Part shown: in pieces, positions 13,349 through 13,858 of the stretch
Layout of the letters: each line of letters starts with the position of its first letter
How positions within the stretch are numbered: position 1 is the first letter of the stretch
Origin: Deltaproteobacteria bacterium RBG_16_49_23
GTDB lineage: Bacteria > Desulfobacterota > BSN033 > UBA1163
Direction: 5' to 3'
Assembly (NCBI GenBank): GCA_001798855.1
Contig: MGQQ01000141.1
Span: 1 to 37,746, forward strand
Length of the DNA: 37,746 nucleotides
The notes under the pieces: generated by a model
What the model was told of the DNA's origin: nothing
The model's database searches: none
Seen by the model: only the letters and a program-made list of their open reading frames with translations
Made by a program: the position numbers and the translations under genes

Positions 13349-13858
13349 CTATCCTTTCATTTCAAGGGTGCTCCTGACATTCTTCCGATCCGCAAGGGTC
13401 TCCTTTTCGATCTTCTTCTGGAGTTCTAAGATCGCTGTAAGGAGCGACTCCGGCCTGGGGGGGCAACCCGGCACATAGACATCCACGGGAAGTATTTGAT
13501 CTACGCCCTGGACCACACTGTAGGTTTTGAAGATCCCGCCTGAGCAGGCGCAGGCTCCATAGGCGATGACCCATTTAGGCTCCGGCATCTGCTCGTAGAT
13601 GCGTTTGACCATGGGCGCCATCTTCTTGGTCAGCGTCCCGGCCACAATCATAAGATCCGCTTGCCGGGGGGACGGCCTGAAAACCTCTGAACCGAATCTC
13701 GAAATATCCCACGTCGCCGAACTGGTGACGATCATCTCCAGGGCGCATCAGGCCAAGCCAAAGGTCACCGGCCAGATCGAATATTTCCGGCCCCAGTTGA
13801 CAACCTTGTCCAGGACCGGCATCAAAGGGGTTTTTTCAAGGTAGGTTTCTATTCCCAT
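13349..13858 (-). CDS. nuoB: NADH-quinone oxidoreductase subunit B with in-frame UGA at the first N2 cysteine (possible selenoprotein)
   Basis: Subunit that carries terminal cluster N2, 169 aa if the UGA at 13748-13750 is read through. The N-terminal 36 codons end in NWGRKYSIWPVTFGLA; then UGA, then CALEMIVTS and the rest of NuoB (GSEVFRPSPRQADLMIVAG, YGACACSGG, VPGCPPRPE). In NuoB the motif is FGLACC, so the UGA stands exactly at the first Cys. From the second Cys (38) to Cys103 and Cys132 the spacings are 65 and 29, the same as in Thermus Nqo6 as I recall it, so nothing is inserted or lost. Start 13858 overlaps the end of nuoA and has AAAGGAG upstream. The open question is Sec insertion against a nonsense mutation or sequencing error. 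A product starting at the next ATG (13735) would lack both N2 cysteines of the pair. Confidence 0.85.
13712..13730 (-). promoter_or_regulatory. SECIS-like stem-loop downstream of the nuoB UGA
   Basis: CGTC pairs with GACG, then one A-C mismatch, then CC with GG, closing the loop AGTTC. The apical loop begins 25 bases after the UGA, within the spacing accepted for bacterial SECIS elements, and contains GU as in the Escherichia coli fdhF element. The stem is short and was found by eye; no energy was computed. Confidence 0.4.

What the first reader, a model, noticed from the sequence alone, without database searches (positions are those of the whole stretch)
13748..13750. In-frame UGA at the first cluster N2 cysteine of NuoB: possible selenocysteine complex I
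The nuoB frame is open from its ATG (13858), coupled to nuoA, to its stop (13349), except for one UGA. The UGA falls exactly at the first Cys of the tandem Cys pair in FGLACC, a ligand of terminal cluster N2. Both flanks are intact NuoB, and the spacing to the two other ligands (65 and 29 residues) matches the Thermus homologue. A random error or nonsense mutation would rarely hit this codon, and a pseudogene in the middle of an intact 12-gene operon is unlikely. The fdhA gene 0.6 kb upstream has a UGA at the known Sec site, which supports a Sec-decoding host. I do not know of an established Sec form of NuoB. A Sec ligand would be expected to alter N2 potential or lability.
Basis: partly seen in the sequence, partly recalled or inferred. 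Interest (0 to 1): 0.95.

Follow-up and report, generated by a model that had tools for sequence, protein, structure and literature searches.

The report
Selenocysteine at complex I's last cluster
In the 58 bacterial genomes read here, from what appear to be two phyla, the gene for a core subunit of respiratory complex I carries an in-frame UGA exactly where a cysteine normally holds the iron-sulfur cluster next to the quinone; it is likely read as selenocysteine, which would put selenium at the step where this enzyme hands electrons to quinone.

Summary
nuoB (13349-13858, -) is open except for TGA at codon 37 (13748-13750), the first cysteine of FGLACC. The same codon is TGA in 12 of 16 nuoB genes of the window's order. 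A pattern for it hits 35 of 395 genomes of its phylum and 33 of 395 of a second one, Nitrospirota by record title; the reversed pattern hits 0 of 395 in both. I read the frame in 58 of the 71 genomes. Close relatives have TGC/TGT. The host has selB and tRNA-Sec. In the second phylum selB is in 32 of 33 TGA genomes and 11 of 47 others. A SECIS-like hairpin follows the UGA by 23-25 nt in the window's phylum, with compensating wobble changes; in the second phylum it is weaker (2 of 11 at p<0.05). dN/dS after the UGA is about 0.03. Sec/Cys needs 10 changes on the tree. NuoB is absent from a 2026 table of 119 selenoprotein families. Selenocysteine as a ligand of cluster N2 is very likely; its effect is inference and no protein data were seen.

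The parts
13349..13858 (-). nuoB, complex I subunit B, 169 codons with one in-frame UGA
13748..13750 (-). UGA, codon 37, predicted selenocysteine at the first tandem N2 ligand
13712..13730 (-). predicted SECIS-like upper hairpin, loop AGUUC, 24 nt after the UGA (positions 21-39 counted from the U)
   Evidence: local energy -6.5 kcal/mol, p 0.005 against synonymous recodings; one A-C mismatch in the stem of this copy
13849..14205 (-). nuoA, overlaps nuoB start
12856..13344 (-). nuoC
11682..12899 (-). nuoD
9584..11536 (-). fusion of a NuoF-type Fe-S tail with a GltD-like NAD(P)-binding flavoprotein, inside the nuo operon; likely input subunit
8534..9553 (-). nuoH
8104..8517 (-). nuoI-like, two 4Fe-4S
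   Evidence: Fer4 domains; nuoI by place and type
7398..7964 (-). nuoJ
7068..7385 (-). nuoK
4993..6981 (-). nuoL
3384..5039 (-). nuoM-like proton antiporter subunit
   Evidence: PF00361; M by order
1862..3319 (-). nuoN-like proton antiporter subunit
   Evidence: PF00361; N by order
14453..17161 (-). FdhA with NuoG-like N-terminus and its own UGA at 16088-16090; possible electron input of the same complex
   Evidence: in 8 of 20 first-phylum TGA loci a relative lies inside the nuo operon after the GltD-like gene

Best explanation
The UGA is likely translated as selenocysteine by SelB and tRNA-Sec, guided by a predicted SECIS hairpin just downstream, so that the first of the two adjacent ligands of complex I's terminal cluster N2 would be a selenolate instead of a thiolate. 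Shown: the codon, its place on a ligand column, its recurrence in two phyla, Cys relatives, selB and tRNA-Sec in the host, purifying selection on both sides, and hairpins with compensating changes. Inferred: the insertion itself, ligation of N2 by Se, and the effect. Most likely effect: the residue corresponds to the more mobile of the strained tandem cysteines, next to the quinone-ligating tyrosine, so a softer, more acidic and more reversibly oxidised selenolate would tune the N2 potential and its coupling to quinone, and would make ligand loss or cluster damage easier to undo in sulfur-cycling anaerobes. The trait goes with NuoB rather than with one electron-input module.
For: Same TGA in 12 of 16 genes of the order, 35 of 395 genomes of the phylum and 33 of 395 of a second phylum, control 0 of 395 each. 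Host has tRNA-Sec and selB. Second phylum: selB in 32 of 33 TGA genomes and 11 of 47 others, Fisher p 1e-11. Hairpin: 15 of 21 distinct TGA sequences beat 95% of synonymous recodings, 9 of 91 Cys sequences do; wobble-wobble pairs formed in 27 of 27 cells, 38 of 78 in near Cys genes. dN/dS 0.03 after the codon. Ligand column and mobility of the residue: and PMC8042128 passages.
Against: No reads, peptide or Se data. In the second phylum only 2 of 11 hairpins reach p<0.05 and two have none by the rule used. In the window itself the upper hairpin is modest (-6.5) with one mismatch. A plain fold around the UGA was not significant. In the first phylum Cys genomes have selB and tRNA-Sec as often as TGA genomes (35 and 33 of 38 in both). 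Three TGA genomes there lack selB over the cut-off and five lack tRNA-Sec (none lacks both); G629 in the second phylum lacks selB. selA and selD were not searched.
Confidence: 0.9

Rival explanations
1. Sequencing or assembly error, or a fresh nonsense mutation in a decaying nuoB.
For: The window is a draft bin in 171 contigs and no reads were seen; a second NuoB-like gene exists in this genome.
Against: Same codon in 71 genomes including a single-contig one, G219; dN/dS 0.03 after the UGA among 12 genes; 10 of 12 TGA genomes of the order show no other NuoB above 30 bits.
Confidence: 0.01
2. UGA is read as an ordinary amino acid (Cys or Trp) by a changed code or a suppressor, without selenium.
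For: No protein data exclude it for single genomes.
Against: TGA is the stop of nuoB itself in 5 of 12 TGA genes of the order; the UGA tracks selB in the second phylum and has a SECIS-like hairpin in the first.
Confidence: 0.03
3. The gene makes a shorter NuoB that starts at the ATG after the UGA (128 codons in the window), and the first part is not used.
For: ORF calling gives such ORFs in the window and in G219.
Against: It would lack both tandem ligands; the 36 codons before the UGA are under purifying selection (median dN/dS 0.07, 65 pairs).
Confidence: 0.02
4. Sec is inserted but makes no functional difference: Sec and Cys interchange almost neutrally at this ligand.
For: 10 changes on the tree; sister species have Cys with the same operon start; some Cys genes keep a hairpin (L010 and L047; L123), though distant Cys genes such as L061 and L095 have one as well.
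Against: UGA decoding is costly (recalled), yet one clade of 28 rows has Sec throughout.
Confidence: 0.25

Closest known systems
NuoB / Nqo6 / PSST (NDUFS7) of respiratory complex I, PF01058
   Same: Same fold family, same four ligand columns, same operon neighbours.
   Different: First tandem N2 cysteine replaced by UGA; none of the 17 NCBIfam models that match is described as a Sec form.
Predicted Sec form of NADH:ubiquinone oxidoreductase subunit E (Table 1 of PMC13188914, its ref. 59)
   Same: A complex I subunit listed as a predicted selenoprotein.
   Different: Another subunit, not the one that holds N2.
Sec-NifD, nitrogenase alpha subunit with Sec for one P-cluster cysteine (PMC3760896, passages; also in Table 1 of PMC13188914)
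   Same: Sec proposed as ligand of an iron-sulfur cluster in place of an invariant Cys, reported for three species including Thermodesulfatator indicus.
   Different: Unrelated enzyme; P-cluster instead of a [4Fe-4S] terminal cluster.
Sec formate dehydrogenase and [NiFeSe] hydrogenase
   Same: Sec as a metal ligand in anaerobic redox enzymes (PMC13188914, section 7).
   Different: Sec binds Mo/W or Ni in the catalytic subunit, not an electron-transfer Fe-S cluster.

Membership tests
NuoB (complex I subunit B) | scores over the family cut-off along its length | tested here: met
   NF005012 243 bits, cut-off 116, with the UGA read as Cys
NuoB (complex I subunit B) | four N2 ligand columns filled by Cys | tested here: not met
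   three are Cys (38, 103, 132), the first is UGA; met if Sec counts as a Cys equivalent
NuoB (complex I subunit B) | encoded with the other complex I core genes | tested here: met
   nuoA-D and H-N around it in the window
bacterial selenoprotein gene | in-frame UGA with conserved coding on both sides | tested here: met
bacterial selenoprotein gene | Cys homologues at the same column | tested here: met
   four of 16 in the order; 91 of 149 rows of the tree
bacterial selenoprotein gene | SECIS hairpin after the UGA, G in the first two loop places, 16-37 nt away, -7.5 kcal/mol or less (PMC13188914) | tested here: met
   36 of 41 first-phylum TGA sequences meet it somewhere in the range (window -8.9), but so do 43 of 98 Cys sequences; weak in the second phylum
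bacterial selenoprotein gene | selB and tRNA-Sec in the genome | tested here: met
   wider counts
bacterial selenoprotein gene | selA and selD in the genome | not tested
bacterial selenoprotein gene | Sec found in the protein | not testable with these tools
   needs mass spectrometry or 75Se

The most novel reading that the evidence does not exclude
A selenolate-ligated N2 is a widespread natural form of complex I in two phyla, switched with the Cys form about ten times, found in complexes with formate-dehydrogenase/GltD-like, Mo-oxidoreductase and full NuoEFG-like input genes, where it retunes the last electron step to quinone; annotation hides it because ORF calling gives an N-truncated NuoB.
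Probability: 0.75. Interest if true: 0.92.

Novelty: new variant of a known kind. Interest (0 to 1): 0.87.

Why it matters
N2 is the cluster that reduces quinone in complex I, and its strained tandem ligands and pH-dependent potential are much discussed in work on the coupling mechanism (PMC8042128, passages). A natural sulfur-to-selenium swap at the mobile ligand, with Cys sister species for comparison, would be a clean probe by EPR, Se spectroscopy and structure. It would also add a broad selenoprotein family that the 2026 inventory does not list, and correct truncated nuoB calls in many genomes.

Tried and rejected
Error and pseudogene: rejected by recurrence and dN/dS. Code reassignment: rejected because TGA also ends nuoB in 5 of 12 TGA genes of the order and tracks selB. 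First idea that Sec-NuoB goes only with complexes that lack NuoEFG: suggested by the first 20 loci (no NuoE or NuoF hit; the window itself has such genes about 10 kb upstream), dropped when 14 of 20 second-phylum loci showed NuoE and NuoF hits after nuoD. Co-occurrence with Sec machinery in the first phylum does not discriminate. A plain fold of 57 nt around the UGA was not significant (z -0.55); the position-bound test was set up after seeing the folds. TAA/TAG stops that one search reports in other nuoB genes: in the nine that I fetched (L149-L157) the ligand codon is TGC or TGT and the frame runs on for 120-126 codons, so those matches ran past the gene end. Protein search (120 of 7966 hits listed): the 13 that I read all have CC, but the tool turns U into C, so this says nothing about Sec records. 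Papers: searches for NuoB or its long name with selenocysteine or selenoprotein (11, 24, 6 and 1 papers) and for Thermodesulfatator with selenocysteine (5) showed no report of a Sec NuoB; most were judged from the listing (15 of 24 listed), passages were read in PMC5736913, PMC5109826, PMC7117926 and PMC3760896. Subscription papers and bioRxiv are not held, so the novelty claim rests on these searches, on section 7 of PMC13188914 (read whole) and on NCBIfam.

Full report
What is there. nuoB lies on the minus strand, 13858 to 13349, starts inside the end of nuoA, and is open for 169 codons apart from TGA at 13750-13748, codon 37. With that codon read as Cys it scores 243 bits on the NCBIfam NuoB model (cut-off 116) and aligns without gaps to Thermus Nqo6 at offset +8 over residues 12-158. 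The UGA, Cys38, Cys103 and Cys132 thus fall on Nqo6 45, 46, 111 and 140; that these are the N2 ligands in Thermus is recalled. [quoted passage not shown] The match to that chain starts at offset +48 (its alignment was not printed), which puts the UGA on C85. The operon is nuoA-B-C-D, a NuoF-tail/GltD-like fusion, then H to N. Upstream on the same strand lies an FdhA with a NuoG-like N-terminus and its own UGA; that this is the usual FDH Sec site is recalled.

Recurrence. Of 17 genomes searched in the order (one family), 16 have a nuoB at 87% identity or more, the own gene included; 12 of these 16 have TGA at codon 37 and four have TGC or TGT. Of 23 genomes of the class, G018 of a second family also has TGA and G021 has Cys; G022 matches only from residue 87 on. 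In the phylum 342 of 395 genomes have a match to the protein. A pattern for G-L-A-UGA-C-A-x-E hits 35 of 395 genomes, 17 of 245 genera; the reversed pattern hits 0. With three members of the order outside that sample (G004, G006, G013) this makes 38 genomes, and in all 38 the site lies in NuoB; in G346 the contig begins three codons before the site. Named public records with it are L041 and L042 (titled Syntrophaceae), L043 (Deltaproteobacteria), L052, L062 and L066, so the phylum is taken to be Desulfobacterota. In the phylum of L104 (titled Nitrospira sp., so taken to be Nitrospirota) 33 of 395 genomes hit at 35 places, control 0. I read 22 of the 35 places, in 20 genomes; all 22 are NuoB in frame. 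One carrier, G219, is a single contig of 2,322,224 bp, the length that I recall for Thermodesulfatator indicus; the genome paper is not held, so the name is unproven. PMC3760896 (passages) reports Sec in the nitrogenase of that species, which fits.

Machinery. The window's genome has tRNA-Sec (82.9 bits, gathering score 47) and selB (353.9 bits, cut-off 242.25). Of the 38 TGA genomes 35 have selB over the cut-off and 33 have tRNA-Sec; none lacks both. Of 38 high-scoring Cys genomes the counts are the same, 35 and 33 (one search used stricter filters), so in this phylum machinery does not separate the two. In the second phylum it does: selB in 32 of 33 TGA genomes and in 11 of 47 others taken at steps down the list, Fisher p 1e-11. 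Those 47 were not checked for a NuoB, and relatedness is not corrected for. selA and selD were not searched.

Hairpin. Of 41 first-phylum TGA sequences (38 genomes plus L052, L062, L066; L066 and L147 may be one genome) 36 meet the published bSECIS rule somewhere in its range, but so do 43 of 98 Cys sequences. With the loop held at 22-26 nt after the UGA, 21 distinct TGA sequences average -9.3 kcal/mol and 15 of 21 have p<0.05 against synonymous recodings; 91 distinct Cys sequences average -1.9 and 9 of 91 have (Mann-Whitney p 1e-11, sequences not independent, rule set). Loops begin with AGU, GU, AGG or GG. In one register (9 distinct sequences) the three pairs that join two third-codon positions are formed in 27 of 27 cells, with CG, GC, UG, UA and AU all in use at one of them, and 0 of 5000 shuffles reach that; in 26 near Cys sequences it is 38 of 78, reached by 470 of 5000. 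In the second phylum, of 11 distinct sequences two have p<0.05, six lie between 0.06 and 0.08, one at 0.16, and two have no hairpin by that rule; a plain fold gives those two a 7-nt loop at -5.5 kcal/mol. The fdhA UGA, as a positive control, has a hairpin of -15.8.

Selection and history. Among 12 TGA genes of the order the median dN/dS is 0.07 before the codon (65 pairs) and 0.03 after it (66 pairs). On a NuoB tree of 149 distinct rows (58 TGA, 91 Cys, site masked, 140 columns, 57 of 146 inner branches open) the label needs 10 changes, at least 5 forced by starred branches. Gain and loss cannot be told apart by the count. One clade of 28 rows, from both phyla, is TGA throughout. Hairpins in Cys genes L010 and L047 and L123 hint at reversals, but distant Cys genes L061 and L095 have one too.

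Context. The 20 first-phylum loci that I mapped have a GltD-like gene after nuoD (10), a Mo-oxidoreductase and/or its Fe-S partner before nuo genes (9; in G219 the Mo subunit is nearest thiosulfate reductase PhsA, below its cut-off) or neither (1). Of 20 second-phylum loci 14 have NuoE and NuoF hits after nuoD, mostly followed by a hit to the FdhA/NuoG query, three are of the Mo-oxidoreductase kind, two have neither and one is unclear. The trait therefore goes with NuoB and not with one input module.

Reading. Sec insertion is very likely; that Se binds N2 follows from the ligand column; the effect is inference. NuoB is not among the families in Table 1 of PMC13188914 (section 7 read whole), which lists a subunit E entry; none of the 17 matching NCBIfam models is described as a Sec form; the paper searches showed no report. 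A likely reason for the gap: ORF calling gives a NuoB of 128 codons in the window and 119 in G219 that starts after the UGA.

Noticed in passing
window 16088-16090 (-): FdhA with a NuoG-like N-terminus has an in-frame UGA in HCARL-U-HSST with a hairpin of -15.8 kcal/mol; with nuoB this would be two Sec proteins in one stretch.
   Followed up: partly
window 9584-11536 (-): Fusion of a NuoF-type 4Fe-4S domain with a GltD-like NAD(P)-binding flavoprotein inside the nuo operon; relatives sit at the same place in 10 of 20 first-phylum loci. A possible alternative NAD(P)H input module of complex I.
   Followed up: partly
window 17440-20029 (-): Restriction-modification cassette (Vsr-type endonuclease, NgoFVII-type restriction enzyme, C5 cytosine methylase) between the two fdhA genes.
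   Followed up: no
L002 (G000:C53:1742-2173): Second NuoB-like gene without a stop in an 811-codon open frame, the length of a NuoBCD fusion; not scanned.
   Followed up: no
G617 and G789 (L222, L223, L227, L228): Two Sec-type nuoB genes in one genome, one in a nuoE-F-G-like operon and one of the Mo-oxidoreductase kind.
   Followed up: partly
L010, L047, L123: Cys-type nuoB genes that keep a SECIS-like hairpin, possible relics of a Sec state.
   Followed up: no
G011:C36, G015:C152, G172:C52, G198:C18, G300:C50: A second, weaker tRNA-Sec match over the cut-off (52-64 bits); in G011 and G015 it lies 44 bases from a selB gene.
   Followed up: no
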